Positions 3,702 through 21,735 of a DNA stretch of 64,000 nt are shown here, one piece after another. Within the stretch, counting starts at the first letter, position 1. Each line of letters opens with the position of its first letter. The notes under the pieces are model-generated. The model was not told where the DNA came from, did no database searches, and saw nothing but the letters and a program-made list of their open reading frames with translations. Made by a program: the position numbers and the translations under genes. Source of the stretch: Cellulomonas sp. (GTDB lineage Bacteria > Actinomycetota > Actinomycetes > Actinomycetales > Cellulomonadaceae); contig NZ_JADGMY010000023.1 in NCBI RefSeq assembly GCF_015234515.1, positions 618,366 through 682,365 on the forward strand, read 5' to 3'.

Positions 3702-5492
3702 GTGAACCTGTCGGGTCGACCGAACGGAGCTGTGGTGGCGGGGGAGACGATCGCGAGGTTCGCCTTCGACTCGCGGGCTGTGGATCGCTGGTCGCGCGCG
3801 GACCGGCGCCACATGAACTGGCCGGTCGTGTACGTGATCGACGACCAGCTGGCAACGACGAAACCTGGTGCACGAACGTCCGTATACGTAGGAGAGTCGC
3901 TCAGCGCAGCCACGCGGATGCGTCAGCATCTGGATGCCACGAACAAGCAGGGCTTGCGTACCGTCCGAGTGATCATCGACGACGAGTTCAACAAGTCGGT
4001 GTGCCTCGACCTCGAGGCGTACCTCATCGGTCTGTTCTCCGGCGACGACGCGCACCGGGTGATCAACCTGAACGTCGGGGTAAGGGACGCGGACTACTTC
4101 CAGCGCGAGAGGTACCGGCGCCAGTTTCGCGAGGTCTTCGAGGCGCTGCGGGCCGAAGGTCTCTTCTCCCGGTCGCTGCCGGAGATCGAGAACAGCAACC
4201 TCTTCAAGCTCTCGCCGTTCAAGGCGCTGAGCGAGGACCAGGCAGTGGCCGTGGAGGGCATCCTCGAGGGCCTTTTCGCCGATCTCACCGCTGACGTCGG
4301 CCGTTCGATCGTCATTCAGGGTAGCCCTGGTACGGGCAAAACGGTCGTCGCAATCTACCTCATGAAGGTGCTGCTCGACATCGCGCGCACCTACACCGAC
4401 GACGACATCGACCAAGATGGTCTGTTCGTCGACTTCTTCGCCGCAGGTTATCGCGAGCTTCTCCACGGCTTCCGCATCGGGCTCGTCGTGCCGCAGCAGT
4501 CCCTGCGGGCGTCGATCAAGGCTGTGTTCGCCAAGACGCCCGGCCTGCGACCCGAGATGGTGCTCTCGCCGTTCGACGTGGGGAAGGCGACGGACAAGTA
4601 CGACCTCCTGATCGTCGACGAGGCACACCGGCTCAGCCAGCGCGCCAACCAGCCGTCGGGTCCGCAGAACCAGATGTTCCGCCACATCACCGAGCGGTTG
4701 TTCGGGTACGACGACGTGAGCCGCACGCAGCTGGACTGGATCAGAGCCCAGAGCAAGCAAGCGGTGTTCCTGGTGGACGGTGACCAGAGTGTGCGCCCGG
4801 CGGATCTGCCGACTGCCGCCATCGCGGACCTAGTGTCGGAGGCGCGTCGAGATGCGCGTTGGTACCCGCTGATGTCGCAGATGCGGGTCGCAGCGGGGGC
4901 GGATTACGTGCAGTACGTCAGGGATGTCCTCACCGGGCGACCTGGCCTCGCGCGGCAGGTCTTCGAGGGCTACGATCTGCGGTTTTACGATGATCTAGCT
5001 GCCATGCGGGACGCCGTTCGGCGTCGTGACGACACGCACTCGCTCGCCCGGCTCGTCGCCGGGTACGCCTGGGACTGGGTCAGCAAGAAGGACCCAACTG
5101 CCTTCGACATTATCATCGGCGGAGTCGCAATGCGGTGGAACTCTGCCGAAAAGGACTGGATCAACTCCTCGGCGTCCGTCGACGAAGTCGGGTCTATCCA
5201 CACCGTCCAGGGGTATGACCTGAACTACGCCGGTGTGATCATCGGGAAGGAGTTGCGCTACGACGCGCGGTCCGGGCGGTTGCTCGTCGATCGAGCGTCC
5301 TACCGGGACCGTAAGGGCAAGGAGAACAATCCGACGCTCGGTGTGCGCTACTCGGACGAGGATCTACTGCGGTACATCGTGAACATCTATAGCGTGCTGC
5401 TGACGCGGGGCATGCTTGGAACATATGTGTATGTCTGTGACCCGGAACTTCGTGAATACCTTCGGGGATTCTTCAGCAATGTCCCCGGATGA
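3702..5492 (+). CDS. GIY-YIG nuclease-like N-terminus fused to DUF2075 (Schlafen-like) P-loop helicase
   Basis: N-term VVYVIDD...YVGES...RMRQHL...LEAYLIGLF...NLN; Walker A IVIQGSPGTGKTVVAIYLMK; DLLIVDEAHRLSQ; VFLVDGDQSVRP; SIHTVQGYDLNYAGVIIG. Confidence 0.85.
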   Translation: MNLSGRPNGAVVAGETIARFAFDSRAVDRWSRADRRHMNWPVVYVIDDQLATTKPGARTSVYVGESLSAATRMRQHLDATNKQGLRTVRVIIDDEFNKSVCLDLEAYLIGLFSGDDAHRVINLNVGVRDADYFQRERYRRQFREVFEALRAEGLFSRSLPEIENSNLFKLSPFKALSEDQAVAVEGILEGLFADLTADVGRSIVIQGSPGTGKTVVAIYLMKVLLDIARTYTDDDIDQDGLFVDFFAAGYRELLHGFRIGLVVPQQSLRASIKAVFAKTPGLRPEMVLSPFDVGKATDKYDLLIVDEAHRLSQRANQPSGPQNQMFRHITERLFGYDDVSRTQLDWIRAQSKQAVFLVDGDQSVRPADLPTAAIADLVSEARRDARWYPLMSQMRVAAGADYVQYVRDVLTGRPGLARQVFEGYDLRFYDDLAAMRDAVRRRDDTHSLARLVAGYAWDWVSKKDPTAFDIIIGGVAMRWNSAEKDWINSSASVDEVGSIHTVQGYDLNYAGVIIGKELRYDARSGRLLVDRASYRDRKGKENNPTLGVRYSDEDLLRYIVNIYSVLLTRGMLGTYVYVCDPELREYLRGFFSNVPG

Positions 5493-7257: not shown

Positions 7258-7819
7258 GCGCCCAGCCCGACGCGACCGCGGTCGAGAATGACTTGTGAGG
7301 CGCCCTAGCGGTGACGACCCGCGGGACCGGGGTTGGCGGCCGCGGGTCCTACCCACGTCGCCTCGCATCCGCACCGCGAGAGCGGGCCGTGGCGAACACG
7401 TTTCACACAGTCCTGGCGCCGAGATGCAGGCGGCCGTCAGAGCCTGACCGCGTTCGGGTCGACCCGCGTCGCCGTCCAGGTCGACTGCGCGGTCGGCGCT
7501 TTCCTCGTTCTGCTGCGGGTGACGCGTTGGGTGCGGGGGGCGGGTTCGGTTCGCCACTGAACGACAGGCGTGCGTAGTCCTGCCCGAGTTCCGGGTCCAT
7601 GTGCGGAGGATGCCGCAGGTCGTGTCCGTGGAAGTGATGTAGTCGTCGGGCGTTCGGTGCCTGACCACTGGGCATGCTCTACAGCCGACGTCGGAAGCTG
7701 CCGAGATACCAGGCAGAGCATCGTCACCACGATGTCCTTCTTGTGTTCCGGATCATGAGGTGTGCACCGCTACGGTGTCGACGGGCCGCGACGAAGTGGC
7801 GCTATGGGGGAGAGACAGC

Positions 7820-10444
7820 GTGAGTGACTCAGTCGTCGAGGACGCGGCCTGGAACGCGTTCACCGGTTTCACCTCCAGGTCCCAGCCGCATGAGGTGATC
7901 CAGGGACTGCGAGCAATGGGGTTCCCCGAGGACAGGCTCGACGCCTTGCTGGCCAGGCACGAGCTCAAGGCCCGGGAGATCATCCAGCTGCGCGAGCCGC
8001 TGGGCATCTCGCGTGAGGGGCGGGTGCCCTGGTACATCGGCCCTCGCTCGGGCGACGTCAACTGGCCCCCGCTGGAGAAGCGGTTGGTGCGAAAGCTGGG
8101 CAGCGAGTCCGCTGCGAAGATCGACGCTGCATCCAGCAAGGTGGTAGCGATGCTGGACCACCCGGCGACGCCGGAGTTCGCGGCGAAGGGGCTCGTCGTC
8201 GGTCACGTGCAGTCGGGGAAGACATCTAACTTCACTGCCGTCATCTGCAAGGCGGCAGACCGCGGGTATCGCATGTTTATTGTGCTGTCCGGCGTTCACA
8301 ACGCTCTGAGGGCTCAGACGCAGGCGCGTCTCGTGAGCGACATCGTCGGCGCAAATCCGACCTTCTGGCACCAGATCACGAGCGCGGAGCGCGATTTCGT
8401 ACCGCCTGCGAATGCGGCCTCACTCCTCGCGGTCAAGGACCAGGCACTACTGCTTGTCGTGAAGAAGAACGCGGTGGTCCTGCGCAAGTTGCGTCGGTGG
8501 CTCCTGAGCGCTTCCGAGCATCTGGCGCAGGTCCCGACACTCATCATCGACGACGAGGCGGACCAGGCGACAGTTGCTACGAAGACCATCAACCCGCTCA
8601 TCGCCGACATCGTGGAAGGTCTGCCAAAGGTCTGCTACGTGGGCTACACCGCGACGCCCTTCGCCAACCTGGTCATCGATCCGTCCGATGAGCGGGACTT
8701 CTACCCGCGCGACTTCGTCCTGAGTCTCGAACGGCCGAGCTCCTATCAGGGTCCGGAGACGCTCTTCGGCAGGCGAGCGCTGGACGGCGAGGACCCTGCC
8801 GACGTCCCTGGCGGACTCGACGTCATTCGGGACATCGCAGAGGAGGAGCTTCCCGACCTGCGTCCACGGAGCAGGGCCGACATCCCCGGGTTTGCGCCGC
8901 GGATCACGGACTCGTTACGGGACGCACTCCTGTGGTTCTGGCTCGCAACGGCCGCCCGTAGATGTCGCTCCGGGACGGCCGAGCACTCGTCGATGCTCGT
9001 CCACGCGCACTCAGACACACGGGTTCACGACTCGTACGCGGAGCCCCTCCGCCAGTTCAGGAGCTTGACGCTCGGGGCTCTCCGATCCGGTGACACGCGG
9101 TTGGAGACCGAGCTGCGCCGTCTCTGGCACGACGAGACCTCCCGAGTACCCGCGTCCGAGCTCGGCGAGTCGCCCCTGGCGTTTGCGGACGTGTTCGCCC
9201 TGCTGACTGCCGTCGTCAGTGACACGGACGTCATCCTCGACCACTATCGCAGCCAGGATCGCCTCAACTACGACGGCGGGCCGCGCACCGTCATTGCTGT
9301 CGGTGGCAACACGCTGTCCCGAGGGCTGACGCTGGAGGGCCTGGTCGTCAGCTTCTTCGTGCGCTCCGCGGACGTGTACGACACCCTGCTCCAGATGGGC
9401 CGGTGGTTCGGGTACCGGCCGGGCTACTCGGACTTGCCGCGCATCTGGATGCCGGCACAGCTTCGCGACTGGTACGCCCACCTCGCCACGGTGGAGGAGG
9501 AGATCCGTCGGGAGATCGATCGCTATCTCGTCGAGCACAAGTCACCCCTCGACCTCGCGGTCCGCATCCGCTCGCACCCGAAGATGAGGATCAGCGCAGC
9601 CGGCAAGATGACGAACGCTGTGCGTGCTGCGGCGGCTTACGGCGGCGAGCTGGTTGAGTCCCGCTACTTCCCGGTCGCCCCAAAGGAGGAGGCGGGCGCG
9701 TGGCTGGACAGAAATGCAGCGGCGGTCAACGACTTCCTCACCCGCTGCGCGATCCGGGGGCGGGAGGACAGCGCGACGGTGCCGGCCAGCACCGGAAAGG
9801 TGCTTTGGCGGGGTGTGAGCTCGCGTGACGTAGTGACGTTCCTCGAGAGCTACTCCTTCCACGAGAGATCCGTCGAGGCCGATCGCGATCTTCTCGTGCG
9901 GTACATCGACGGTCGTGTCCGTGCCGGCGGGTTGAAGTCGTGGAACGTCGCGGTCATGGGGCAGCCCACGGCGAGGGCCCTCAAGGTCCTCGAGCTTCCT
10001 CACGGTGCGTCCGTGGGCATGGTCCGTCGGTCTCGTCTGAAGAACTCCCCGATCACCGCCTGCGCAGACATCAAGACGCTCTCCGGTTCGCGTGACGAGG
10101 CCATCGACCTTGTCGTGTCCGCCGGGGCTGCGAAGCTGGGCCGGACCGGGTACGCCAGGCTCCGGGTCGAGCAGACGCCCGAGACCGGTCTCGTCCTGCT
10201 GTACCCGATCGACCCTCTGTCGCCCACGACACTCAGGGGTCGCGAAGAGCTCGACGCGCCTGCGGATGTCGTGTGGGGCGCGGCCCTCGTTTTTCCGCAG
10301 CCGTCCGTCGGGAGTGATCTCCCGGTCCACTACGACTTCTTCTCGGCAGACCTGTCCGGGATCTTCCCAGCGCTCGACGAGGACGACGAGGTCGACCTTG
10401 CCATCCTCGACGAGGACCTCGACGGCGTCGAGAGCGACGCATGA
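7820..10444 (+). CDS. Z1 domain-containing SF2 helicase/ATPase
   Basis: VVGHVQSGKTSNF Walker A, LIIDDEADQ, Z1 hallmark LLQMGRWFGYRPGYSDLPRIWM; GTG start at 7820 with GGGGGAGA SD (ORF can extend to 7760). Confidence 0.9.
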   Translation: MSDSVVEDAAWNAFTGFTSRSQPHEVIQGLRAMGFPEDRLDALLARHELKAREIIQLREPLGISREGRVPWYIGPRSGDVNWPPLEKRLVRKLGSESAAKIDAASSKVVAMLDHPATPEFAAKGLVVGHVQSGKTSNFTAVICKAADRGYRMFIVLSGVHNALRAQTQARLVSDIVGANPTFWHQITSAERDFVPPANAASLLAVKDQALLLVVKKNAVVLRKLRRWLLSASEHLAQVPTLIIDDEADQATVATKTINPLIADIVEGLPKVCYVGYTATPFANLVIDPSDERDFYPRDFVLSLERPSSYQGPETLFGRRALDGEDPADVPGGLDVIRDIAEEELPDLRPRSRADIPGFAPRITDSLRDALLWFWLATAARRCRSGTAEHSSMLVHAHSDTRVHDSYAEPLRQFRSLTLGALRSGDTRLETELRRLWHDETSRVPASELGESPLAFADVFALLTAVVSDTDVILDHYRSQDRLNYDGGPRTVIAVGGNTLSRGLTLEGLVVSFFVRSADVYDTLLQMGRWFGYRPGYSDLPRIWMPAQLRDWYAHLATVEEEIRREIDRYLVEHKSPLDLAVRIRSHPKMRISAAGKMTNAVRAAAAYGGELVESRYFPVAPKEEAGAWLDRNAAAVNDFLTRCAIRGREDSATVPASTGKVLWRGVSSRDVVTFLESYSFHERSVEADRDLLVRYIDGRVRAGGLKSWNVAVMGQPTARALKVLELPHGASVGMVRRSRLKNSPITACADIKTLSGSRDEAIDLVVSAGAAKLGRTGYARLRVEQTPETGLVLLYPIDPLSPTTLRGREELDAPADVVWGAALVFPQPSVGSDLPVHYDFFSADLSGIFPALDEDDEVDLAILDEDLDGVESDA

Positions 10445-11454
10445 CGCAGCGTCGGAACGTCGAGTCGGAGCTGCGCCGCACGCTCGACTACTTCTGGACC
10501 CAGCTTCCCGTGCCCGACGGGCCGACCGTCGCGTCGACCGCGATCGCGCTCCAGGTGGGGGGCGGCTCGGTGCGTGTCGGGGTGGATTCTGAGGGGCACC
10601 GGCACCTGCTCGTCCCCCTAGCCCACAGTCGTCCCGAGGTGTCCGACCGGAGCGGAACGGCGGTCCGGCTCACGACGCGGCCGCTGACATCGGAGGTGGG
10701 GGGCGGCCGCTACGTGGACCTCGAGTGCCTGCGGCCTGACCTGGACGGGGTGTTCACGGGCCTGGCGGCGGACATCTGCCTCGGCCTCGTGTCCGCCCCG
10801 GACGACCCCGGCACGACCGTGCGGCGGCATCTCGAGAACTGGCGCACGCTGCTGGGCTCCGGTGCGCAGACGTGGAACGCCACCCGCCTGGCCGGGTTGA
10901 CCGCCGAGCTCCTCGTGCTGGAGCAGCTGCTCGGACTCGACGAGGGGGCGGTCGCACTGTGGACGGGCCCCGACGGGGCCGCGCAGGACTTCCGTTCGGC
11001 GCGTCATGCCATCGAGGTCAAGGCGAGCCTCACCCGGGAGGGCAGGCTCGTCCGTGTCCACGGCACCGACCAGCTCGAACCGCCCGTGGGAGGCGTTCTC
11101 GGTCTGGTGTGGTTCCGGCTGCGTCAGACGAGCGCCGAGAACGGCGACGGTCTCGCCGACCTCATCGCGCGGTGCCTGGATGGGAGCAGCCACACGGCAA
11201 TGATCGAGCGGCTCGGAAAGCTCGACTTTCCCGGCGTTGCGTCCCCGGTCGTTCGTGAGTTCAGGTTTGAGGTGGTCGAGCAGCGCTGGTACCTGGTGGA
11301 CGACGGCTTCCCGGCGATCTCTCCCCAGAAGTTCGAGCACGCTGCCGTACCAGCTGGTGTCGGAGGCGTCGAGTATCTGGTGGACCTGGATGTCGTGACT
11401 CCGGAGCTGCGGCCGGTGGGAGACCTGTACGCCGTGGTGGTGGAGGACTCGTGA
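10441..11454 (+). CDS. PD-(D/E)XK motif protein (DUF4420-like nuclease)
   Basis: ATGA overlap with Z1 gene; RSARHAIEVKASLTREGR catalytic-like ExK; typical Z1-operon partner. Confidence 0.8.
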   Translation: MTQRRNVESELRRTLDYFWTQLPVPDGPTVASTAIALQVGGGSVRVGVDSEGHRHLLVPLAHSRPEVSDRSGTAVRLTTRPLTSEVGGGRYVDLECLRPDLDGVFTGLAADICLGLVSAPDDPGTTVRRHLENWRTLLGSGAQTWNATRLAGLTAELLVLEQLLGLDEGAVALWTGPDGAAQDFRSARHAIEVKASLTREGRLVRVHGTDQLEPPVGGVLGLVWFRLRQTSAENGDGLADLIARCLDGSSHTAMIERLGKLDFPGVASPVVREFRFEVVEQRWYLVDDGFPAISPQKFEHAAVPAGVGGVEYLVDLDVVTPELRPVGDLYAVVVEDS

Positions 11455-13319
11455 CTGCTCCGACGTGGTTCTCGCAGCCGTTCTCACCTGCGGGTGGGAT
11501 CACTGCCGAGGGACTGCGGAATCAGCTCGGCCGGCCGTCACTGTCCTTGCTGACCGTCCTGGTGCGTGAGGCTGCGCAGAACTCCTGGGACGCCCGGATC
11601 GGTGAGCGTGTCGACTTCTCCATGCACCTCGGGACTGTCGGGCCTGATCGCGCGCATGTCTGGCGGGAGCTGCTCCTCCCCGGCGCACCGCGACCGGTGG
11701 GACCGGTCCGCGGCCTGGGGGAGTCGTTGCGCAAGAGGTCGATCCGCTACCTGGCCGTGACAGACCGGGGGACGACGGGCCTAGGGGGGCCGACGCGATC
11801 GGACCACTACGCAGAGCCGGGAAACCGCGGGTGGCTCTCGTTCGTGCTCAACTCCGGCGAGAAGCAGGACACTGACGGTGGCGGTGGCACCTACGGGTAC
11901 GGGAAGGGTGCGTTCTTCCTGGCGAGCCGAGTTGGCACCATCCTGATCCACACGAGGTTCAGGGATGAGAGCGGCGAGCTCCGCACACGGCTCATCGGCT
12001 CGGCACTTCTGGGCGAGTTCCACGACCGAGACCGGAGACCGTTCACCGGACGCCACTGGTGGGGGGACGTCAGGTCCGACCACTGCGAGCCCCTCGTCGA
12101 CCAGGTGGCTTCCGAGTACGCCGATCGTCTGGGACTGCCCCCGTTCGAGGGAAACTCGACGGGGACAACGGTCGTCGTGATGGACCCGGACCTGAGAGAC
12201 GCGTCGGACGACGGGGACGGGCCGGACCTCTCGCAGGACGAGGCGGGCGAGTACCTCGCGGACGCAGCGGCATGGAATCTTTGGCCACTGACTCTGGTCG
12301 ACCGCGACCAGCGGCTGAACCTGTCGATCTCGGTGAACGGCGTCGCCGTCCAGGTCCCAAATGAGTCGAACGATGCCGCCATCGCTTGCTTTGCTCGCGC
12401 GTACCGGAAGATGCTCGAGCGTGAGCCCGGTGGCCGGATCGAGTGCTTGAAGCCTCGCCGTCTCCTCGGTCAGTTCGCGGTCGAGCAGACGTTCGGCGCA
12501 AGCGTCCGCCATCGAGCGGCGGAGGAACTGGGACTCGAGCGCGACAAGGCTCCGCACCACGTTGCCCTGATGCGTCACCCGGACCTCGTGGTCGGCTACT
12601 TCGAGGGTCAGGCGAAGCCGCATCCTGAGGTGGGGTACGCGGGAGTGTTCAAGGTCGACGACGACCTCGACGTGGTCTTTTCCCGTGCCGAGCCGCCGAC
12701 CCACGACGCCTGGGTGGACGCCCAGCTGAGCGGGCATGACGCGACGTTCGTCCGTGTCGCGCGCCGGCGGCTGTCCGACCGTTGTGCCGACCTGGTCGGA
12801 CCCCGCCACGTCCCCCGCGCCGTCGAGAGCACCCCCGTCGGAGGTGTCTCGCAGCGCCTCGGGTTCCTGCTCGCGGGCGGGGGAGGTGCTCCGGTGGATG
12901 GTGACCAGGATGTCGTGGTGCAACCCCCGAGCCGGGGTGGTGACGCTACGGGCGCGGGCGGCGGTGCCCGGCGGTCGGGTGACGGTACGGGGCGGGCCGG
13001 TGCACGGCGGAAGCCGCGCTTCGTCGGAGAACCGCGCTTCGAGATGCTCGACGGGCGCTGGGTTGTGGCGCAGGCCCTGCGTGTCTCGTCGGAAGGGAGG
13101 GTACGGGGATGTGTCGCCGTCGTCACCGGTGAGGGCACCGAGGCCTCGGCGCCGGTTGCCGCCGGCCAACCGACTGTCCTGGGATGGCGCCGCTCGGACG
13201 GTGCCGTCGTCCTCGGGGACACCGTCGATGCCGGTAACGAGGAGCTGGACCTACTTGCGTGTCCGGTCGAGGATGCGGCACTGGAACTGACCGTCGAGTG
13301 GGACGGGAACCTGTCGTGA
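11451..13319 (+). CDS. GHKL-type ATPase (paraMORC/MutL-like HATPase)
   Basis: N box VREAAQNSWDA; G1 AVTDRGTTGLGG; G2 GGGGTYGYGKGAFFLAS; GTGA overlap with upstream gene. Confidence 0.85.
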   Translation: MTAPTWFSQPFSPAGGITAEGLRNQLGRPSLSLLTVLVREAAQNSWDARIGERVDFSMHLGTVGPDRAHVWRELLLPGAPRPVGPVRGLGESLRKRSIRYLAVTDRGTTGLGGPTRSDHYAEPGNRGWLSFVLNSGEKQDTDGGGGTYGYGKGAFFLASRVGTILIHTRFRDESGELRTRLIGSALLGEFHDRDRRPFTGRHWWGDVRSDHCEPLVDQVASEYADRLGLPPFEGNSTGTTVVVMDPDLRDASDDGDGPDLSQDEAGEYLADAAAWNLWPLTLVDRDQRLNLSISVNGVAVQVPNESNDAAIACFARAYRKMLEREPGGRIECLKPRRLLGQFAVEQTFGASVRHRAAEELGLERDKAPHHVALMRHPDLVVGYFEGQAKPHPEVGYAGVFKVDDDLDVVFSRAEPPTHDAWVDAQLSGHDATFVRVARRRLSDRCADLVGPRHVPRAVESTPVGGVSQRLGFLLAGGGGAPVDGDQDVVVQPPSRGGDATGAGGGARRSGDGTGRAGARRKPRFVGEPRFEMLDGRWVVAQALRVSSEGRVRGCVAVVTGEGTEASAPVAAGQPTVLGWRRSDGAVVLGDTVDAGNEELDLLACPVEDAALELTVEWDGNLS

Positions 13320-14218
13320 GGACTACTCCCTACGCGGTCCCTAGGCCCTCCGAGGTCATCGCCGAACCCTGGTTCTCTGGGGGCCTACCCGTGGGCCGCC
13401 TTGTCGCGGGCTGGGACTACGAGAGTCTCCTCAAGTTCGAGCGCGTCGTACGGGTGAACCTTCGCACCGTGCTCGAGCAGGCAGGGCTCGAGGCGAACAC
13501 GCCCGTCGCCCTGCACGTCCGGTACTGGGCAAGCGGGTCGATGGTGAGGTGCTCGGCGGTCGTCCAAGGCCTGGTTGCCGACAGCACGGGGTGGTCACAT
13601 GCGCACCTGATCGCCCCGGTGCACGGGAGCGACCTGGCCGGGGAGCTCGTTCTGGAGACAACCCTCGTCAGGCAGGACGACGTCGAGAGCAACCGGTTCA
13701 CGGCCAGGCGGGCGGGCAGCATTCTCTGGCGCGACGCGCACCATCTTGCGCTAGAGGGGGAGGGAGGCCTGCTGCCTGTGGCTCCGGTGCGGTTCCGGGA
13801 GCAGGGGTTCCCCCCGGATGCTGCGTGGTACATCAGTCTCGACGGCGCGGACTGGTCGGCCCCCGCGATGGGCAACCTGCTCGTCCTCCTGAACGTCGAC
13901 AACAGCTCGGTCGTCGAAGCGCTCGAGCCCGGGGATAGTGGCTCGGCGCTCCTGTGGGACGCGCTCATGGTCGACGTGGTCTGCGACCTCGTCAGACGAG
14001 CGCTCGATGACGACGAGTTCCGACCTGTGCAGTCCGACGAGGACGAGCTGTCGACCGGTGGTCTGGTGACAGGTCTGATCCGTTCGTTCCTGAGGCTGCC
14101 CGGTGAGGAGCTTGACGACGCTGTTGCTCGGCTCAGGGGCGAGTGGGTCCGAGACCCGTCCCTCGTCAGGTCACGAGCGCAGAGCGCGCTGAAGTTCCCG
14201 AGGGCGGTCAAGTCATGA
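13316..14218 (+). CDS. hypothetical protein of Z1/paraMORC operon (301 aa)
   Basis: GTG start overlapping the ATPase TGA (GTGA); good coding bias; no recognisable motif. Confidence 0.8.
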   Translation: MRTTPYAVPRPSEVIAEPWFSGGLPVGRLVAGWDYESLLKFERVVRVNLRTVLEQAGLEANTPVALHVRYWASGSMVRCSAVVQGLVADSTGWSHAHLIAPVHGSDLAGELVLETTLVRQDDVESNRFTARRAGSILWRDAHHLALEGEGGLLPVAPVRFREQGFPPDAAWYISLDGADWSAPAMGNLLVLLNVDNSSVVEALEPGDSGSALLWDALMVDVVCDLVRRALDDDEFRPVQSDEDELSTGGLVTGLIRSFLRLPGEELDDAVARLRGEWVRDPSLVRSRAQSALKFPRAVKS

Positions 14219-14976
14219 CTCGGCTCTACCCGAGGCTCCTCCCTGCCGAGGCCGAAGCGCGATTCGCCTCTCTCGCGCAAGCCGCGGCCCAGTCGGATGG
14301 TGTCCCGGAAAGGGTCACCGCAGCGCGTACGGTGTTCGCGGCCTCCGGTGGTCGGCGGACCCAGGTTGACGAGTTGCGCGGCCTTCGTGCCAGGGTGCTG
14401 GCGCTCGCTGTGGAGCACGGGTTCCCCGACCGGGGTGGGACCGACAGTCGGAGCAGCTTCGACCGTGCACTAGCCCGGCTCCTTCACCTGGAGATGGGCA
14501 TCGGTCCGGGCGAGGCCTCCCAGCGTCAGGTGTGGGCGTATCTTGCACTCGTCCTCCTCCCTGACGTCTGCGCCTGGCGGTTCCCGCCGGGGGCGGGCGG
14601 GTTCGTGGCGGACAGGTTCAAGGGCACGGACCTGACGCGGCACGTGTTGGCGAGGCTCTGGTGGCGTGCCCATCTGCTGCGCGACGAGCAGCCAAGGGCC
14701 GATCCTTATTGGATGCTCGATGTGCTGGGTGAGGCCGACCTGGATCAGATCATGGCGCGGCGGCGGTCGGTTGCGGCCAGCCCGGGACTGGTGCGTGCCG
14801 TCGTGCGCACGTCAGCGGCGGAGGACGGGAGCGGGGGCAGGGAGGTCTTCCGCGACCTCCTGAAGCGATTGCTACGACTCACGGCCTTCCTCGACGTGGA
14901 CTGGATGGGAGAGGCGGAACTCACGGCGCTCGTCGCCCGTGAGAGAGCCGTATCCCTCGCACACCTCGGTCGGTGA
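14215..14976 (+). CDS. DUF6339-like protein of Z1/paraMORC operon
   Basis: ATGA overlap; MTRLYPRLLPAEAEARF...WAYLALVLLPDVCAWRFP...RNxF-like family features recalled for DUF6339. Confidence 0.7.
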   Translation: MTRLYPRLLPAEAEARFASLAQAAAQSDGVPERVTAARTVFAASGGRRTQVDELRGLRARVLALAVEHGFPDRGGTDSRSSFDRALARLLHLEMGIGPGEASQRQVWAYLALVLLPDVCAWRFPPGAGGFVADRFKGTDLTRHVLARLWWRAHLLRDEQPRADPYWMLDVLGEADLDQIMARRRSVAASPGLVRAVVRTSAAEDGSGGREVFRDLLKRLLRLTAFLDVDWMGEAELTALVARERAVSLAHLGR

Positions 14977-14993
14977 GTAAGGTCAGGCGACCG

Positions 14994-15527
14994 TCAGGGG
15001 ATCTGTGTCCGCGGTCGGTGGTGACTCGGTACGTCGTGACCTACGCCGATTTCCTCCGCAGGGCGGTCGAGCCCGCGGACGACGGCGTTGATCTCATCCG
15101 CTATCACCCAAGCCTCCTCGTGTTCCCAGTAGCGGAGCACGCGCCACCCCGCAGACTCGAGCACGTGGTTGGTGTCGGTATCCCGGACAACGTTCCGGCG
15201 TAACTTGGTGAGCCACCAGTCGGAGTTGGCTCGTGGCTGGGTCCCGTGCTCGGGGCAGCCGTGCCAGAAGCACCCGTCCAGGAAGATCGCGATCCTCGAT
15301 CGCGTGAATGCGATGTCGATGGTCCTCCGCGGGAGCCCTGGGACGGGGTAGTTGACCCGGTAGCGCAGCCCACGGGCGTGGAGAATGCGGCGGACGTCGA
15401 GCTCGGGCTTTGTGTCCCGCCGTCGAGCCGCGCTCATCCGTTCGCTCACCGACGGGCTCGACGCCCCCGGGTGCGGGGCAACCTGCTCCATGGGAACCAG
15501 CGTACCTGGCGGGGTGGCAGCGTTCAT
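14994..15527 (-). CDS. vsr: very short patch repair (Vsr) endonuclease
   Basis: RRRDTKPELDVRRILHARGLRYRVNYPVPGLPRRTIDIAFTRSRIAIFLDGCFWHGCPEHGTQPRANSDWW hallmark. Confidence 0.93.
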   Translation of the reverse strand: MNAATPPGTLVPMEQVAPHPGASSPSVSERMSAARRRDTKPELDVRRILHARGLRYRVNYPVPGLPRRTIDIAFTRSRIAIFLDGCFWHGCPEHGTQPRANSDWWLTKLRRNVVRDTDTNHVLESAGWRVLRYWEHEEAWVIADEINAVVRGLDRPAEEIGVGHDVPSHHRPRTQIP

Positions 15528-15586
15528 GGTGAGATCGAGCGTGTCCGCAGGTCAGGGCTGGGGCCGGCAGCGGGTACGATCGCCCG

Positions 15587-17113
15587 GTGACGAGCGACGG
15601 GCTTCCTGGGGCCCCCTTCACTGTCCTCGATCTCTTCGCCGGCTGTGGTGGTCTCACGGAGGGCTTCCACCAGTACCGCCCCACCGGCGCGACCGGCCCC
15701 GTCTTCCGCACCCTCGGGGCTGTCGAGTGGGAGCCCGCGGCAGCCGCGACCTATGCCGCCAACTTCGTCGACGGGCCACGCCGCGGTGTGGCCGCCCCGC
15801 CCGAGATCGTCTGTCGAGACATCGTCGGCTGGGAGCCGCGGTGGGCGCCGGGCGAGATCGATGTCGTGGTCGGGGGGCCTCCCTGCCAGGGGTTCTCAGG
15901 GCTCAACCGCGAGAGGGTGCGGGCCGATCGCAACACGCTGTGGCAGGAGTTCATCCGCGTCGTCGTCGCCATGCAGCCCAAGGTCTTCGTGATCGAGAAC
16001 GTCGACAGGTTCCTCCGGTCGGTCGAGTTCCAGGATCTGAAGGAGCGGATCGGCGGCGCCGACCTGATGAACTATCGGCTGGTCGACCCCGGATCGAAGC
16101 CGGGTGAGGACGCGTGGGCCCAAGACCGCCGCTACCTCCTGAACGCCGCCGACTTCGGCGCTCCGCAGGCCCGCCGGCGAGCCATCGTCATGGGCGTCAG
16201 GACGGACGCCGACCTCCGCCTCGACCTGCTGCGCTACCCGAGACAGACGCACTCGAAAGAGATGCTGAAGCACAAGAAGGACCTCGAGGGCATCAGTCTC
16301 CCCCTCGGCAGCGAGGAACCGTGGGCGACCGCCGACGCGATCTTCGAGGAGACGGCGAGGAGGAGCGTGGCTGCGGAACTGCCGACGCTCGCTGCACGCT
16401 CGGTCCGTGGAGTTGGCGGCCGGTACCCCGGGCCGTTCCGCACGACCGACCTCCACATCGGGCGAAGGCCGGAGCAAGTCTCGCTCGCGCGTTACCGGGC
16501 GATCCCGCGTGGCGGGAACCGGAAGGACCTGAGAGGCCGGTACGTCTGCCGCTTCCGCGACGGCACCGAGATGATCACGGAGAAGGTCGGGTTGCCCCGC
16601 GGGAACGACGGCGAGCTGCTCGTGCTGGGTGCCCACACTGTGGTCGAGGAAGGTGTGCCGACGTCCGAACGAGTCCTGGTCCGGGACGCCGTCGCCGTCA
16701 CGGAGGAGACTGCGAGGCGTCGCAGCAGGTCGCAGCGGTACAGCGCCGTCGTGGTCGCCGGTGACGTCGAGCGGCCCGCCCAGCTCGAGTACCTCTCCAC
16801 CGTCTCGTGGGACGCGCACGACGCAGGCTCGGGAGACGTCATGGGCAGGCTCCGGCGCGGTGAGCCGTCCGTGACCGTCCGCACCGAGTTCTTCAAGCCC
16901 GAGAAGGGGCGCTACCTGCATCCATCGGAGGACAGGCCCATCACGCACCTCGAGGCAGCGCGTCTCCAGGGCTTCCCCGACGACTACGTGTGGTTCGGCT
17001 CGAAGATCGAGATCGCACGGCAGATCGGTAACGCAGTGCCCATCCCGCTCGGTCGCCGGATTGCGGAGTCGATCTACCGGTACCTCAGTCAAGCGCAGGA
17101 CAGCGCGGGCTGA
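15587..17113 (+). CDS. DNA (cytosine-5-)-methyltransferase
   Basis: Motif I VLDLFAGCGGLTEGF, motif IV GGPPCQGFSGLN, motif VI VIENV, motif VIII QARRRAIVMG, motif X RQIGNAVPIPLG. Confidence 0.95.
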   Translation: MTSDGLPGAPFTVLDLFAGCGGLTEGFHQYRPTGATGPVFRTLGAVEWEPAAAATYAANFVDGPRRGVAAPPEIVCRDIVGWEPRWAPGEIDVVVGGPPCQGFSGLNRERVRADRNTLWQEFIRVVVAMQPKVFVIENVDRFLRSVEFQDLKERIGGADLMNYRLVDPGSKPGEDAWAQDRRYLLNAADFGAPQARRRAIVMGVRTDADLRLDLLRYPRQTHSKEMLKHKKDLEGISLPLGSEEPWATADAIFEETARRSVAAELPTLAARSVRGVGGRYPGPFRTTDLHIGRRPEQVSLARYRAIPRGGNRKDLRGRYVCRFRDGTEMITEKVGLPRGNDGELLVLGAHTVVEEGVPTSERVLVRDAVAVTEETARRRSRSQRYSAVVVAGDVERPAQLEYLSTVSWDAHDAGSGDVMGRLRRGEPSVTVRTEFFKPEKGRYLHPSEDRPITHLEAARLQGFPDDYVWFGSKIEIARQIGNAVPIPLGRRIAESIYRYLSQAQDSAG

Positions 17114-17209
17114 TCTGCGAAGAGGTCTCATGGCGGCAGCCGTAGCCGCCGTCGGAGCTGGGTCGTCGAGCCCCATGGGGGACGGTCCTCGTGCGTCACG
17201 TGCTGTGCG

Positions 17210-17390
17210 GACCGGCGCTGGTGCCCCAGGACGTTGTCGTGCGGGCCGTCGGCGAGCTCGTCGGACGCCCGCGTGTAGTAGCTCCAGCGGTCGGCGTGGT
17301 CGACGTCCCGACCTGCCGCGGGCGCTCCATGGGCCGAGCTCACCAGCACGCCCGGGAGAGGGGCAAGCTCCACGGCAGGCATTCACCCTG
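17210..17390 (-). pseudogene. degraded copy of the 5' end and upstream region of the HNH gene at 18832-19818
   Basis: DNA similarity: gtgccccaggacgttgtcgt...cgagctcgtcgg...tgtagtagctcca.gcggtcggcgt...catgggccgagctcaccag vs 19708-19840 gtgccccaggacgtcgccgt...cgagctcgtcgg...tgtagcagctccaggcggtcggcgt...catgggccgagctcatcag. Peptide WSYYTRASDEL...NVLGH vs WSCYTGTTDEL...DVLGH. Confidence 0.75.
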
Positions 17391-17455
17391 ACAACAGCCC
17401 TCGCCGGCGATGGTGCAAGAGTCGACCCTCGGTGAGACTCCGCCGCGGCGTCCCG

Positions 17456-18685
17456 TCACGCCCGACCCACGCCCCGCCTCCCCGCCCGAGCTGCGAACCC
17501 GTCCAGCGCGGTGAGCACCTGCGTCGACTGCCACAGCACCGACCGGCGCCGCCCGCCGACCTCCGCCAGCGCACCAGCCGCCACGAGCCGCTCGATCGCC
17601 CGCATCGCGTTGGTGTGTGAGATGCCGAGCTCACGCTGGACGGTGGCGGTGTTGACGACCGGGTGGCGGAGGACGAGCTCGACCAACGGCCATGCGGACG
17701 AGTCCGAGCGTGCCTTGATCCGCATCCGCCACTCGCTGCGCGCCGCGCGGAGGTCCGCCAGCAGGATGCGGCCGTTCGCGACGGCCTCGTGCGTGGCGCG
17801 AGCGAGCTCGAGGACGATCGCTGCCGGATCGCCCGCACGGTAGGCGGTGAGCGCGTCGAAGTACGCGGACGTGTCCACGAGCAGGCCGGCGGACACCGGA
17901 ACGGTGACGGACCTCGTCAGCCCGCGGCGTCGCAGGAGGGCGTGGATCAGGGCCCTGCCGGTGCGCCCGTTGCCGTCGGGGAAGGGGTGGATCGTCTCGA
18001 ACTGTGCATGCGTGAGTGCCGCGTGGACGAGCGGGGGGATGTCGTCGCGGTGGGCGAACGCCACGAGGTCGGCGATCGCCGTGGGGACGCGGCCGGGGTG
18101 CGGGGCGACGAACGCGGCACCGTGAGGGGAGTACCCGGTGCCGCCGATCCAGACCTGCTCGGTGCGCCACCGACCGGCCGCCTCCGGCTCGGCGCCCTCG
18201 AGCAGCGCGCGGTGCATCGCGAGGATCGCGTCGGCGTCGATCGTCTCCGACAGTGCGATCGCCGCCTGCATCGCGTGCACGTTGCCGACGATCTGCACGG
18301 CGTTCCGCCGGGCTTCTTCTCCGAGCTCCGCGAGGGCGATCTGCTTGGCGCCGGACGTCAGGTTCTCGATCTGGGAGCTCGAGGCGGACTCGGACCGGAG
18401 CAGGATCGCAGCGAAGGGAGCCACGTCGCCGGCCGCTTCGGCGTCGAAGTCCCGGATCACCGCGGACGCCTCCTCGGCGGCCGCCGCAGCGGCGCGCGGC
18501 AGCCGCACGTCGAGGTCCGCGACGGCCGGCGTCACGGCAGCGCGATACGGCTCCCGGAGCGCCGCGCGTGCCGACTGCGAGAGCAGGTCGGGCGGAAGCG
18601 TCGATCGCCACGGTCGTTCCTCCCACGCGAGCGCAGGCCAGGATCGGTGGGCTCTCGGCTGATCGGCGTCAGCAACGGTGTGCAC
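17456..18685 (-). CDS. Fic family protein with N-terminal inhibitory motif and C-terminal winged helix
   Basis: Fic motif HPFPDGNGRTGR; inhibitory [S/T]xxxE[G/N] motif SSQIEN; C-term VNTATVQRELGISHTNAMRAIERLVAAGAL HTH. Confidence 0.92.
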   Translation of the reverse strand: MHTVADADQPRAHRSWPALAWEERPWRSTLPPDLLSQSARAALREPYRAAVTPAVADLDVRLPRAAAAAAEEASAVIRDFDAEAAGDVAPFAAILLRSESASSSQIENLTSGAKQIALAELGEEARRNAVQIVGNVHAMQAAIALSETIDADAILAMHRALLEGAEPEAAGRWRTEQVWIGGTGYSPHGAAFVAPHPGRVPTAIADLVAFAHRDDIPPLVHAALTHAQFETIHPFPDGNGRTGRALIHALLRRRGLTRSVTVPVSAGLLVDTSAYFDALTAYRAGDPAAIVLELARATHEAVANGRILLADLRAARSEWRMRIKARSDSSAWPLVELVLRHPVVNTATVQRELGISHTNAMRAIERLVAAGALAEVGGRRRSVLWQSTQVLTALDGFAARAGRRGVGRA

Positions 18686-18831: not shown

Positions 18832-19818
18832 TCACACCCGCGCCAGGTCCTTCCACCGTGCCCGCGCCGCCGCATGGTGCTCCTCGATCAGCCCCACGTC
18901 CGGCAGCCGCGTGGCGTGCACCGAGATCCGCCGACCGTCGAGCACGGCGAGGCTCTCGTGCCGCTCCAGCAGCACCGGCGCGACCTGCGTCGTCCACGTC
19001 CGCGGGTGGAACGTCAGTACCAGCCGGTCGAACAGCCGGTGCACGTCGGCGCGCAGCAGCAGCCCGCCGTCGTCGGCGTGCTCCGGTCGGTCGGCGAACC
19101 GGTACAGGTGCGCCGCGTCCAGGACCATCTCCGGCTGCGCACCCGTGACGGCGCACGTGGCCCCGTACCGGTCGAGCAGGTGCTCGCGGAAGCGCTGCTG
19201 CCCGACGCGTCGTCGCACGACCGCCTCGACGTGCCCGCCCGTGATCGGGGCGCCGTGGCGCAGCAGCTCGGCCTCGAGCGCCTCCTCGACGCCCCCGAAC
19301 TCCTCGAGCATCGTCAGCGCCCGCGCCCAGTCGAGCCGGCGGATCGCGTTCTGCCGGTCGGCGCCGGCGTAGACACCCTCGAGCGCGCGGACGGGCAGCG
19401 GGGAGTCGAGCGTCCGCCACGAAGAGCGGTAGACGGCGGAGTACCGGGTCACCGCCATGTCCTTCAGGACCGGCTCGTCGAACTCCGCCTTGCAGTCGTT
19501 GCAGCGGTACCGCGGGAGTGCCCGCTTGCGCGCCGTGGCGTCCGCCGACCCGCACTGAGGACACCGGCGCATCGTCTTCACGCCCGGTCCGCTGGTGACG
19601 TCCTCGACCACGCCGTGGCCCAGGATCAACTGACCGTCCCGCACGACCAGCAGGTCACCGGGCGCGATTGCCTTGTGGTTGACGACGTTCGAGTCGTACT
19701 CGTACCGGTGCCCCAGGACGTCGCCGTACCCGCCGCCGACGAGCTCGTCGGTCGTCCCCGTGTAGCAGCTCCAGGCGGTCGGCGTCGCTGCCGACCCGAC
19801 CCGCCGCTGGACCTCCAT
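18832..19818 (-). CDS. HNH endonuclease with N-terminal PUA/EVE-like region and zinc ribbon
   Basis: YEYDSNVVNHKAIAPGDLLVVRDG...LGHGVVEDV; CPQCG..RYRCNDCKAEF; YGATCAVTGAQPEMVLDAAHLYRF...NGGLLLRADVHRLFDR-type HNH. Confidence 0.85.
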   Translation of the reverse strand: MEVQRRVGSAATPTAWSCYTGTTDELVGGGYGDVLGHRYEYDSNVVNHKAIAPGDLLVVRDGQLILGHGVVEDVTSGPGVKTMRRCPQCGSADATARKRALPRYRCNDCKAEFDEPVLKDMAVTRYSAVYRSSWRTLDSPLPVRALEGVYAGADRQNAIRRLDWARALTMLEEFGGVEEALEAELLRHGAPITGGHVEAVVRRRVGQQRFREHLLDRYGATCAVTGAQPEMVLDAAHLYRFADRPEHADDGGLLLRADVHRLFDRLVLTFHPRTWTTQVAPVLLERHESLAVLDGRRISVHATRLPDVGLIEEHHAAARARWKDLARV

Positions 19819-20084
19819 GGGCCGAGCTCATCAGCCGGCGCCCCGCGCGACAAGTGTTCCTCCGGCCGTTCACCCTCGTGGCGGCGCGCGCGCCGGCCTG
19901 CGACGTTGTACCGGCCGAGCAGCGTCATGGCCGCCGCCGTGGCCAGAAGGAGGACGGGGGAGCGCATGGTCGTGCACCTCCCGCGGCGATGAGCGCGGCT
20001 GCGTTCACACCTCACGGGGAACCACATCTAGGGCGACGGGCCCGCGCGGAATGCCCCGAGACGTCCCACCTGCGACGCGGATCG

Positions 20085-20609
20085 TCACAGGTCCTCGTGC
20101 CCCGTCCCGGGGACTCGATCCGGGTCGATCCCCAGACGCTTCTCCTCGCGTGCGAGGTCGGCGGCATCGCGTGACAGCAGGATCAGGATCACGATGTCGC
20201 TGAGCTGCTGGACGCCGACCCGCCCACCGTTCTCGAGGTCCCAGAACGTCCGCGGGAGCGACCCGCGGTCCACCTGGACCGACGTGCCGAGTGTCGTCCC
20301 GACGAGCGCGCAGAGGTCGGCGTAGGCGTTCTTCAGCTCCGCCGGTGCCGCCTTGACGGCGTCGGAGACGTTCACGGTGAGCTTGTCGAGGGTTCCGCCG
20401 GTGGCCTCGTCCGACAGCACGAACGCCCGCGCGCGGTCGTCGTTGGTGCCCAGATTCGTGGTGAACCGGACGGCGTTCCGTGTCTCGAGCCGCACGGACC
20501 ACCCGCGAGCGGCGGCGAGGTCGAGCGCGGTCTGCCTCCCGGTCGGCCACGTGAGGGCGCCGAAGGCGCGCAGCAGGTCGTTGATCTGGTCGGGTCTGGC
20601 TGTTCGCAT
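20085..20609 (-). CDS. conserved ~174-aa protein, copy 1 of local family (possibly DUF6301-like)
   Basis: MRTARPDQINDLLRAFGALTWPTGRQTALDLAAARGWSV... closely matches copy 3. Confidence 0.75.
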   Translation of the reverse strand: MRTARPDQINDLLRAFGALTWPTGRQTALDLAAARGWSVRLETRNAVRFTTNLGTNDDRARAFVLSDEATGGTLDKLTVNVSDAVKAAPAELKNAYADLCALVGTTLGTSVQVDRGSLPRTFWDLENGGRVGVQQLSDIVILILLSRDAADLAREEKRLGIDPDRVPGTGHEDL

Positions 20610-20718
20610 CAGGGGCCTCGTCCCGAGCGGTCACGTCTGGAGGACGCGAAGGCGGCGTGCGACCGAGGCAGGCGACGCGGTCCGCGAGCGCGGGCGTCCC
20701 TGGAGTGGAGCGCGATGT

Positions 20719-21106
20719 TCACAGGGCCTCGCGTCCCGTACCCGGGATGCGGCCGGAGTCGATCCCCCAGCCGCTCCTCGCCACGCTCGAGGTCCGCGAC
20801 CTCCTGCGAGCGCAGGACGATGACGACGGACTCGAGCCTCCGGACCACGACTCGTCCACCACTGGCGATGTCCCACACGGTCCGGGCGTGCTCCCACGCG
20901 TCGGTGCGCACCGGTTCGCCCAGCTCGGTCTGGACCGCAGCCGCCACGTCTCGCTGGGCGCCGTCCAGACCTGCAGGCGTTCCGGGATCCCGGTCGGAGA
21001 CGTGGACCGTCAGGTCGAGGACTCGGCTGTCTGCACCGTCCGGCCTGATCAGAGCCCGGAAGGCACGCAGGAGCGCCCGGATCTGACAGGCGGATGCTGT
21101 CTGCAC
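20719..21106 (-). pseudogene. decayed middle copy of the ~174-aa family
   Basis: VQTASACQIRALLRAFRALIRPDG...LDLTVHVSD lacks ~48 residues present in both flanking copies; frameshift in CCCCC/GGGGG at 20764-20768; corrected frame reads LGIDSGRIPGTGREAL* as in siblings. Confidence 0.75.
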
Positions 21107-21210
21107 GGGATGTCCTCCTCGGTCTGCCACGGCCAGATCGTGTCGGGTTCGCCGTCGTGAGCCGGCAGGACGCGGTCCCTCCGTTGGGCGCCCTCGGTGC
21201 TGGTGACGGT

Positions 21211-21735
21211 CTAGAGGTCCTCGTCTCCCGCCCCGGTGATGCGGTTCGGGTCGAGGCCCAGTCGCTTGTCCTCACGGAGGAGGTCGGCGGCGTCGCGCGA
21301 GATCAGGATCATGATCACGATGTCGTCGAGCCGCTGGAAGCCGACCCGCCCGCCGTTGTCGAGGTCCCAGAACGTCCGCGGGTTCGACCCCCGCTCCACG
21401 TATACCGGTGCGCCCAGCGCGTTCTCGGCGACCGCGCAGAGGTCGGTGTAGGCCTTCCTCAGCTCGGTCGGTGCTGCCGCCTCGGCGTCCGAGACGTTGA
21501 CGGTGAGCTTGTCGAGGAGTCCGCCGGTGGCCTCGTCCGACAGCACGAGCGCGCGTGCGCTGTCGTCGTTGGTGCCGAGGTTCGTGATGAAGCTGACGGA
21601 GTTCTTCGTCTCGAGCTCCACGGACCACCCGCGCGCGGCGGCGAGGTCGAGCGCGGTCTGCCGCCCGGTCGGCCAGGTGACGGCTCCGAAGGCGCGCAGC
21701 AGGTCGCTGATCTGGTCGGGTGATGCGGTTCGCAC
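21211..21735 (-). CDS. conserved ~174-aa protein, copy 3 of local family (possibly DUF6301-like)
   Basis: MRTASPDQISDLLRAFGAVTWPTGRQTALDLAAARGWSVELETKNS...; near-identical organisation to copy 1. Confidence 0.75.
   Translation of the reverse strand: MRTASPDQISDLLRAFGAVTWPTGRQTALDLAAARGWSVELETKNSVSFITNLGTNDDSARALVLSDEATGGLLDKLTVNVSDAEAAAPTELRKAYTDLCAVAENALGAPVYVERGSNPRTFWDLDNGGRVGFQRLDDIVIMILISRDAADLLREDKRLGLDPNRITGAGDEDL

What the first reader, a model, noticed from the sequence alone, without database searches (positions are those of the whole stretch)
7820..17113. Z1 / PD-(D/E)XK / paraMORC ATPase / unknown / DUF6339 operon with Vsr and C5 methyltransferase
Five genes are chained by exact 4-bp stop/start overlaps (10441-10444, 11451-11454, 13316-13319, 14215-14218), followed by convergent Vsr and a C5-MTase divergent from Vsr (59-bp gap). 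GHKL paraMORC + SF2 helicase + REase operons linked to methylases were described as restriction-like systems (Iyer, Abhiman, Aravind 2008), and MutL-Z1-DUF-AIPR (mza) is a validated defence system (Gao et al. 2020). This version has no AIPR gene. Inference: an ATP-dependent, multi-subunit restriction module using the 5mC mark as self-signal, with Vsr fixing deaminated sites.
Basis: partly seen in the sequence, partly recalled or inferred. Interest (0 to 1): 0.85.

Follow-up and report, generated by a model that had tools for sequence, protein, structure and literature searches.

The report
paraMORC–Z1 restriction system with methyltransferase
A seven-gene bacterial anti-invader system, in which an ATP-driven DNA-cutting machine sits beside the methyltransferase that probably marks the cell's own DNA, is conserved across at least 28 genera of Actinobacteria and contains two uncharacterised subunits, one of which is fused in Streptomyces to a catalytically dead DNA methyltransferase.

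Summary
In detail: five genes, Z1 helicase, DUF4420 PD-(D/E)XK nuclease, GHKL ATPase, an unnamed protein ("g4") and DUF6339, are chained by 4-bp overlaps, next to Vsr and a C5 methyltransferase. The ATPase carries the ExxxH signature of paraMORC2. Of 80 relatives in at least 28 actinobacterial genera, 77 have all five genes, 78 a free C5 methyltransferase within 6 kb, 69 Vsr. Catalytic motifs are invariant; 315 of 340 junctions overlap. The genome's only Z1, C5 methyltransferase and Vsr genes are all here. Two near congeners lack the block at this site.

New results: (1) the methyltransferase class was swapped at least nine times on a conserved core; (2) in 36 loci DUF6339 is fused to a C5 methyltransferase whose catalytic Cys is always Arg, yet which is under purifying selection, implying a DNA-reading pseudoenzyme; (3) the paraMORC–g4–DUF6339 trio resembles PADLOC's uncharacterised PDC-M33 and takes the place of MzaB and AIPR.

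Best reading: an ATP-dependent, methyltransferase-guarded restriction complex. The general scheme was predicted in 2008 and relatives (CglI, MZA) are validated; this system and its two new subunits are untested. A new variant of a known kind.

The parts
7820..10444 (+). Z1 protein (874 aa): SF2 helicase-like ATPase (GHVQSGKT, IIDDEAD) with Z1 domain (DTLLQMGRWFG)
   Evidence: PF10593 3.7e-63; MzaC-like 8.9e-109 but under cut-off; Walker A and DEAD motifs invariant in 91 loci
10441..11454 (+). DUF4420 / novel REase-fold nuclease (337 aa), E-D-ExK motif
   Evidence: PF14390 3.9e-40; MzaD-like; E, D, E and K invariant in 86 loci
11451..13319 (+). paraMORC2-type GHKL ATPase (622 aa) with C-terminal extension
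   Evidence: four GHKL motifs and ExxxH (EPPTHDAW) invariant in 91 loci; PDC-M33A 3.9e-12; paraMORC2 description in PMC2292703
13316..14218 (+). g4: unnamed 300-aa protein, predicted N-terminal beta-sandwich plus C-terminal helices; likely scaffold/adaptor
   Evidence: no family match; AlphaFold pLDDT 88; only generic beta-sandwich hits in PDB; present in 91 of 91 loci
14215..14976 (+). DUF6339 protein (253 aa), all-helical, no solved fold; invariant Arg/Trp/Asp residues
   Evidence: PF19866 2.2e-17; AlphaFold pLDDT 92; no PDB or viral fold match at E<=0.001; present in 91 of 91 loci
14994..15527 (-). Vsr-family mismatch endonuclease (177 aa or shorter; start uncertain)
   Evidence: TIGR00632 7.2e-35, above cut-off; only Vsr in the genome
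15528..15586 (.). divergent Vsr / MTase intergenic region (59 bp if Vsr starts at 15527)
   Evidence: sequence
15587..17113 (+). C5 cytosine DNA methyltransferase (508 aa), catalytic motifs intact (GGPPCQGFS, ENV, RQIGNAV)
   Evidence: PF00145 4.6e-51; only C5 MTase gene in the genome; catalytic Cys invariant in 75 free partner MTases

Best explanation
This is an ATP-dependent, multi-subunit restriction system (paraMORC2/Z1 type) whose host protection comes from the linked C5 methyltransferase. Proposed working: the Z1 protein is a dsDNA-translocating motor like the H-subunit of CglI; the DUF4420 protein is the nuclease; the paraMORC2 ATPase is an ATP-gated dimeric clamp that loops or holds DNA and licenses cleavage; g4 and DUF6339 are its dedicated partners and link the clamp to target reading. 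Unmodified target sites on incoming DNA start translocation and cleavage; sites methylated by the C5 enzyme are ignored; Vsr repairs T:G mismatches left when 5-methylcytosine deaminates. Shown here: gene content, order, translational coupling, intact catalytic residues, near-obligate linkage to a C5 MTase, insertion in a variable site, and fusion of DUF6339 to a catalytically dead C5 MTase in relatives. Inferred: every biochemical step, the direction of the self-signal, and which subunit reads the target.
For: Five-gene core in 77 of 80 relatives, at least 28 genera, order conserved in 85 of 86, 315 of 340 junctions overlapping. Free C5 MTase within 6 kb in 78 of 80 although only 29 of 60 genomes of the class have any; Vsr in 69 of 80 against 23 of 60 genomes. 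The window genome's only Z1, C5 MTase and Vsr genes are in this locus. Active-site residues of motor, nuclease, GHKL and MTase invariant. Of the two exceptions without a free MTase, one contig ends at the core and the other, L086, has a frameshifted paraMORC. MTase class switched at least 9 times on the core tree, as expected for exchange of specificity. DUF6339 fused to a C5 MTase domain with Cys to Arg in 36 of 36, dN/dS 0.19. Z1/C5-MTase systems proven to restrict: CglI/NgoAVII (PMC4267653; PMC5737866). Patchy presence: 1 of 6 other congeners sampled; block absent at the same site in two congeners.
Against: No phenotype or methylome is available. Five loci lack the nuclease gene between Z1 and paraMORC (L077, L130, L140, L069, L151), so the DUF4420 nuclease may not always be the cutter. 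No C5 MTase was found near L058, L151 and L152, which lie outside the set of 80; L058 is on an 11-kb contig. The target-reading subunit of the window system is not identified: covariation with the MTase gave only weak signals (paraMORC partial r 0.22-0.34; windowed scan inconclusive).
Confidence: 0.68

Rival explanations
1. Abortive-infection type defence: the complex senses invading or damaged DNA and degrades host and phage DNA together, the C5 MTase acting only as an antidote that lowers self-toxicity rather than giving clean self/non-self discrimination.
For: Mza-like relatives pair the same motor and nuclease with AIPR, an abortive-infection family; NCBIfam names MZA an anti-phage system; core nuclease and MTase are nearly always paired, as in a toxin/antidote.
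Against: AIPR is absent here; motor, nuclease, MTase and Vsr together are the standard parts of restriction (PMC2292703; PMC4267653).
Confidence: 0.15
2. The MTase and Vsr form a separate epigenetic/repair pair that merely shares a defence hotspot with the five-gene core; the core senses something other than methylation.
For: Vsr is missing in 11 of 80 loci; MTase class changes at least 9 times independently of the core; the MTase is encoded on either strand and either side of the core.
Against: 78 of 80 loci keep a free MTase and in Streptomycetaceae an MTase-derived domain is fused into the core itself; chance proximity would be well under a few percent (my estimate: about one to two genes per genome of several Mb, some 20 kb searched).
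Confidence: 0.1
3. A methylation-directed mismatch-repair-like system: paraMORC in place of MutL, DUF4420/Vsr as nickases and Z1 as helicase, acting at 5mC-linked lesions.
For: Iyer et al. note the parallel with MutL/Vsr/UvrD (PMC2292703).
Against: No MutS-like partner in the locus; patchy distribution and an island location full of other defence-like genes fit mobile defence better than housekeeping repair; 11 of 80 loci lack Vsr.
Confidence: 0.05

Closest known systems
paraMORC2 / Z1-helicase / NRE operons predicted by Iyer, Abhiman and Aravind 2008 (PMC2292703)
   Same: SFII helicase with DThhQxuRhFG motif (here DTLLQMGRWFG), NRE with E-D-ExK, GHKL ATPase with ExxxH, cytosine methylase and Vsr; proposed DNA looping by the GHKL ATPase
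   Different: The text read here does not describe DUF6339 or g4, nor the DUF6339-pseudomethyltransferase fusion; the figures could not be viewed
MZA anti-phage system (MzaABCDE)
   Same: MzaC-like Z1 motor and MzaD-like DUF4420 nuclease; C5 MTases also adjacent to Mza-like loci in Actinobacteria
   Different: No MzaA, MzaB or AIPR (MzaE) model matched; ATPase is a different GHKL family; g4 and DUF6339 instead
CglI / NgoAVII ATP-dependent restriction-modification
   Same: Z1-domain SF2 ATPase, C5 MTase, separate nuclease subunit; experimentally a translocating restriction enzyme (PMC4267653, PMC5737866)
   Different: Nuclease is PLD-B3 in CglI but PD-(D/E)XK here; the three-gene CglI system has no GHKL ATPase, g4 or DUF6339
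PADLOC PDC-M33 (uncharacterised phage defence candidate)
   Same: paraMORC (M33A) and DUF6339 (M33C) models hit here; colinear trio with a distant g4 homologue in L054, L056 and L068
   Different: In those loci the ATPase carries an HTH domain (shown for L054) and the trio has no Z1-nuclease pair in its own operon; g4 to middle-gene homology is only moderate (hhalign 68% local, 94% global)

Membership tests
paraMORC2 restriction operons (Iyer 2008) | GHKL motifs intact plus ExxxH in the S5 domain | tested here: met
   E, N, D, G and K of the motifs and EPPTH E/H 100% in 91 loci
paraMORC2 restriction operons (Iyer 2008) | co-operonic SFII helicase with DThhQxuRhFG (Z1) | tested here: met
   DTLLQMGRWFG; core residues invariant in 91 loci
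paraMORC2 restriction operons (Iyer 2008) | NRE with E-D-ExK, C5 methylase, Vsr in the neighbourhood | tested here: met
MZA system | MzaC and MzaD orthologues (NCBIfam equivalog cut-offs) | tested here: not met
   364.6 of 1500 bits and 64.7 of 420 bits: homologues, not equivalogs
MZA system | MzaA, MzaB (MutL-like) and MzaE (AIPR) present | tested here: not met
   no PADLOC Mza model other than MzaC/MzaD matches the ten proteins scanned
CglI/NgoAVII | DEAD-Z1 H-subunit | tested here: met
   Walker A, DDEAD and Z1 motifs; by domain, not by a direct alignment to H.CglI
CglI/NgoAVII | R-subunit with PLD nuclease and B3 domain | tested here: not met
   no PLD or B3 domain in any of the seven proteins
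restriction-modification (functional) | restriction of unmethylated DNA and protection by the cognate MTase | not testable with these tools
   needs experiment
PDC-M33 | M33A and M33C models matched | tested here: met
   3.9e-12 and 3.5e-11, partial-length matches
PDC-M33 | middle gene homologous to g4 | tested here: inconclusive
   hhalign probability 68% local, 94% global, negative controls 0.1-0.2%
Druantia / DISARM | DruE/DruH or DrmA/DrmB helicase proteins | tested here: not met
   only the MTase resembles DruM2/DrmMII; no DruE/DruH or DrmA/DrmB match in the seven proteins

The most novel reading that the evidence does not exclude
Probability: 0.35. Interest if true: 0.82.

Novelty: new variant of a known kind. 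Interest (0 to 1): 0.62.

Why it matters
Prokaryotic MORC-family ATPases were predicted in 2008 to drive restriction systems. I found no reported test of this exact arrangement in the open-access library searched. This locus gives a compact, strictly conserved actinobacterial system in which the role of a MORC relative in DNA looping or clamping can be tested, which bears on how eukaryotic MORC proteins act on chromatin. It gives a first functional context for DUF6339 and g4 and relates the PADLOC candidate PDC-M33 to restriction. The conserved dead methyltransferase fused to DUF6339 makes a sharp prediction about which subunit reads DNA. Restriction barriers of this sort may also limit genetic work in Streptomyces and other antibiotic producers.

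Tried and rejected
Viral contigs: no relative of the ATPase. Phage records: no DUF6339. PDB by sequence: no relatives of the ATPase or Z1, only chance-level hits for g4 and DUF6339. Fold search of g4: only generic beta-sandwiches (RbmA, Asf1), no enzyme fold. Fold search of DUF6339 against PDB and viral models: nothing. Identifying the specificity subunit by covariation with the MTase: paraMORC stands out weakly in both sets (partial r 0.34 and 0.22), but sliding windows give small, scattered signals over many tests, so I do not rely on it. Literature search for DUF6339 and PDC-M33: no papers. Considered and rejected: Fic (17456-18685) and HNH (18832-19818) as parts of the system, because homologues of both occur in congeners that lack the operon at this site; I did not count them systematically among the relatives. 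One search for flanking genes failed for technical reasons; one search gave the answer another way.
Full report
OBSERVATION. The window's five-gene chain is real. Z1 (7820-10444), DUF4420 (10441-11454), GHKL ATPase (11451-13319), g4 (13316-14218) and DUF6339 (14215-14976) overlap by exactly 4 bp at each junction, followed by Vsr on the minus strand (14994-15527) and a C5 methyltransferase (15587-17113). Pfam confirms Z1, DUF4420, DUF6339, Vsr and DNA_methylase; the GHKL protein and g4 have no Pfam or NCBIfam family. The genome's single Z1 gene, single C5 MTase gene (two aligned pieces of one frame) and single Vsr gene are all in this locus. The host is a Cellulomonas species, by inference: a 'same genus' genome has a contig of the same length (128461) as the Cellulomonas pakistanensis record.

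HOW CONSERVED IT IS. Of 395 genomes of the class, 31 carry DUF4420. The annotated neighbourhoods fall mainly into two lineages: MzaB-like GHKL - Z1 - DUF4420 - AIPR + C5 MTase, and the window's type, Z1 - DUF4420 - paraMORC - g4 - DUF6339 + C5 MTase + Vsr. The window's type was found in 12 of these 395 genomes, the window's included (about 3%; systems without DUF4420 would be missed). A search of GTDB genomes with the ATPase alignment gave 303 relatives; the best 80 come from at least 28 genera, all Actinobacteria. In these 80, all five core genes are found in 77, a C5 MTase within 6 kb in 79 (78 when the fused domain is not counted) and Vsr in 69. Over the 91 loci studied, order and strand are conserved in 85 of 86 complete cores, and 289 + 26 of 340 junctions are 4- or 1-bp overlaps. 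Relatives of the ATPase also occur on plasmids of Rhizobium, Agrobacterium and Synechococcus, with g4 and DUF6339 beside it in the two that were read. None was found in viral contigs.

ACTIVE SITES. Over 91 loci the Z1 Walker A (GxVQSGKT) and DDEAD, the DUF4420 E, D, E and K, and the GHKL E/N/D, DxGxxG and GxxGxGK residues are invariant or nearly so; the catalytic Cys is invariant in 75 free MTases. The ATPase has E-P-P-T-H, E and H invariant: the ExxxH that Iyer et al. give as the mark of paraMORC2, a family they report mainly in cyanobacteria and Gram-positives (PMC2292703). That fits the distribution here.

MOBILITY. In the window's genus only 1 of 6 other sampled genomes has the ATPase. 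In two near congeners the flanks align at about 80-97%, but the block 7280-17466 is absent or replaced by other content at the same place. That place holds other defence-like genes: NERD, HNH, Fic, and SF1 helicase-nucleases. This is the behaviour of a defence island.

THE METHYLTRANSFERASE LINK. The partner MTases belong to at least two classes (motif IV QGFSxL or QT[F/Y]xVA), and the class changed at least nine times on the Z1+paraMORC tree, forced by well-supported branches (FastTree, a few long branches are unsure). So a constant core has repeatedly been re-paired with different MTases, as expected if MTase exchange accompanies change of target. The two loci without a free MTase are L122, whose contig ends at the core, and L086 (Pseudonocardia oroxyli), whose paraMORC is split between two frames. 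One case, possibly an assembly error, is only a hint that an unguarded core is harmful.

DUF6339 AND THE DEAD METHYLTRANSFERASE. In 34 of the 80 loci, all Streptomycetaceae, DUF6339 is fused to a C5 MTase domain (36 fusions when the two whole-genome loci L049 and L050 are counted; L049 and L106 appear to be the same genome, so 35 are independent). In every one the motif IV Cys is Arg (GGLPR and variants), while the SAM-binding motif I and the ENV motif largely persist. Free partner MTases keep Cys. dN/dS of the dead domain (0.19) is like that of active MTases (0.17) and of the paraMORC (0.20), so it is maintained, not decaying. On the MTase tree the fused domain groups (91%) with a free but equally dead copy in Nocardia neocaledoniensis, and next (100%) with free second MTases of Microtetraspora and Nonomuraea that keep the Cys. 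The simplest history is: a second, active MTase, then loss of catalysis, then fusion to DUF6339. A maintained C5 MTase fold without catalysis is most simply a sequence reader, which places DUF6339 at the target-reading side of the complex. The window itself has no such domain (only one C5 MTase gene), so its reader is unknown.

g4 AND DUF6339 STRUCTURES. g4 is predicted (pLDDT 88) as a beta-sandwich followed by helices with no enzyme-like relative. DUF6339 is predicted (pLDDT 92) all-helical with no solved or viral match. Its invariant residues include R122, R134, D139, R142, R147, W149 and R151, compatible with binding nucleic acid or a partner; this is an inference. The paraMORC-g4-DUF6339 trio resembles PADLOC's PDC-M33: M33A and M33C models hit, and in L054, L056 and L068 a paraMORC - middle gene - DUF6339 trio occurs beside tandem C5 MTases, in two of them also beside an Mza-like Z1/nuclease set. 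Profile comparison gives 99.4% for the ATPases, 97.4% for DUF6339 and 68-94% for g4, against 0.1-0.5% for controls.

MECHANISM. Z1 motors are ATP-dependent dsDNA translocases in CglI, where a C5 MTase belongs to the same system (PMC4267653, PMC5737866). Iyer et al. proposed that MORC/paraMORC ATPases loop DNA between recognition and cleavage sites. Combining these with the anatomy: target reading (DUF6339/g4 side, or paraMORC C-terminus) - ATP-closed paraMORC clamp - Z1 translocation - DUF4420 cleavage - blocked by 5mC - Vsr repairing deaminated 5mC. None was measured.

KNOWN OR NEW. The general scheme was predicted in 2008 and two relatives are validated (CglI/NgoAVII in the papers read; MZA by the NCBIfam name and by general knowledge of Gao et al. 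2020, which was not read here). The combination, its conservation, the two extra subunits, MTase swapping and the DUF6339-pseudo-MTase fusion were not found in the papers searched, which covers open-access papers only. I rate it a new variant of a known kind.

Noticed in passing
window 17220-17347 and about 19707-19835: A 129-bp stretch between the MTase and the Fic gene is 83% identical to the start of the HNH gene at 18832-19818: a truncated copy, probably a scar of island turnover.
   Followed up: partly
window 496-3534 (-), 3702-5492 (+), 22204-28281 (-): Further candidate defence genes around the operon: an SF1 helicase with an MTES_1575 PD-(D/E)XK tail, a Schlafen-group-3 helicase with a weak GIY-YIG N-terminus, and a 2025-aa DUF4011/AAA_11/AAA_12/MTES_1575/DUF3320 protein.
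   Followed up: no
window 20085-21735 (-): DUF6301 genes in near tandem (20085-20609, 21211-21735), also repeated in congeners G854 and G868; possibly an immunity-like array.
   Followed up: no
L107, L114, L120, L131 (Planobispora, Actinomadura, Nonomuraea): DUF6339 carries a ~230-aa C-terminal tail with a faint DUF3320-like match, and a large protein of about 1054 aa (UvrD helicase with a PD-(D/E)XK domain where it was scanned) follows it in the operon.
   Followed up: partly
L077, L130, L140, L069, L151: Systems with no DUF4420 nuclease gene between Z1 and paraMORC; the nuclease may be supplied by another gene.
   Followed up: partly
L054, L056, L068: paraMORC - unnamed - DUF6339 trios (ATPase with an HTH domain) beside tandem C5 MTases, two of them also beside a separate MzaB-like ATPase, DUF4420 and Z1 set: two different GHKL ATPases in one locus.
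   Followed up: partly
L151 (Rhizobium plasmid pSRDI969_2) 3504-6165: An OLD-like TOPRIM ATPase plus UvrD-like helicase pair, resembling Gabija, lies directly upstream of the Z1 gene.
   Followed up: no
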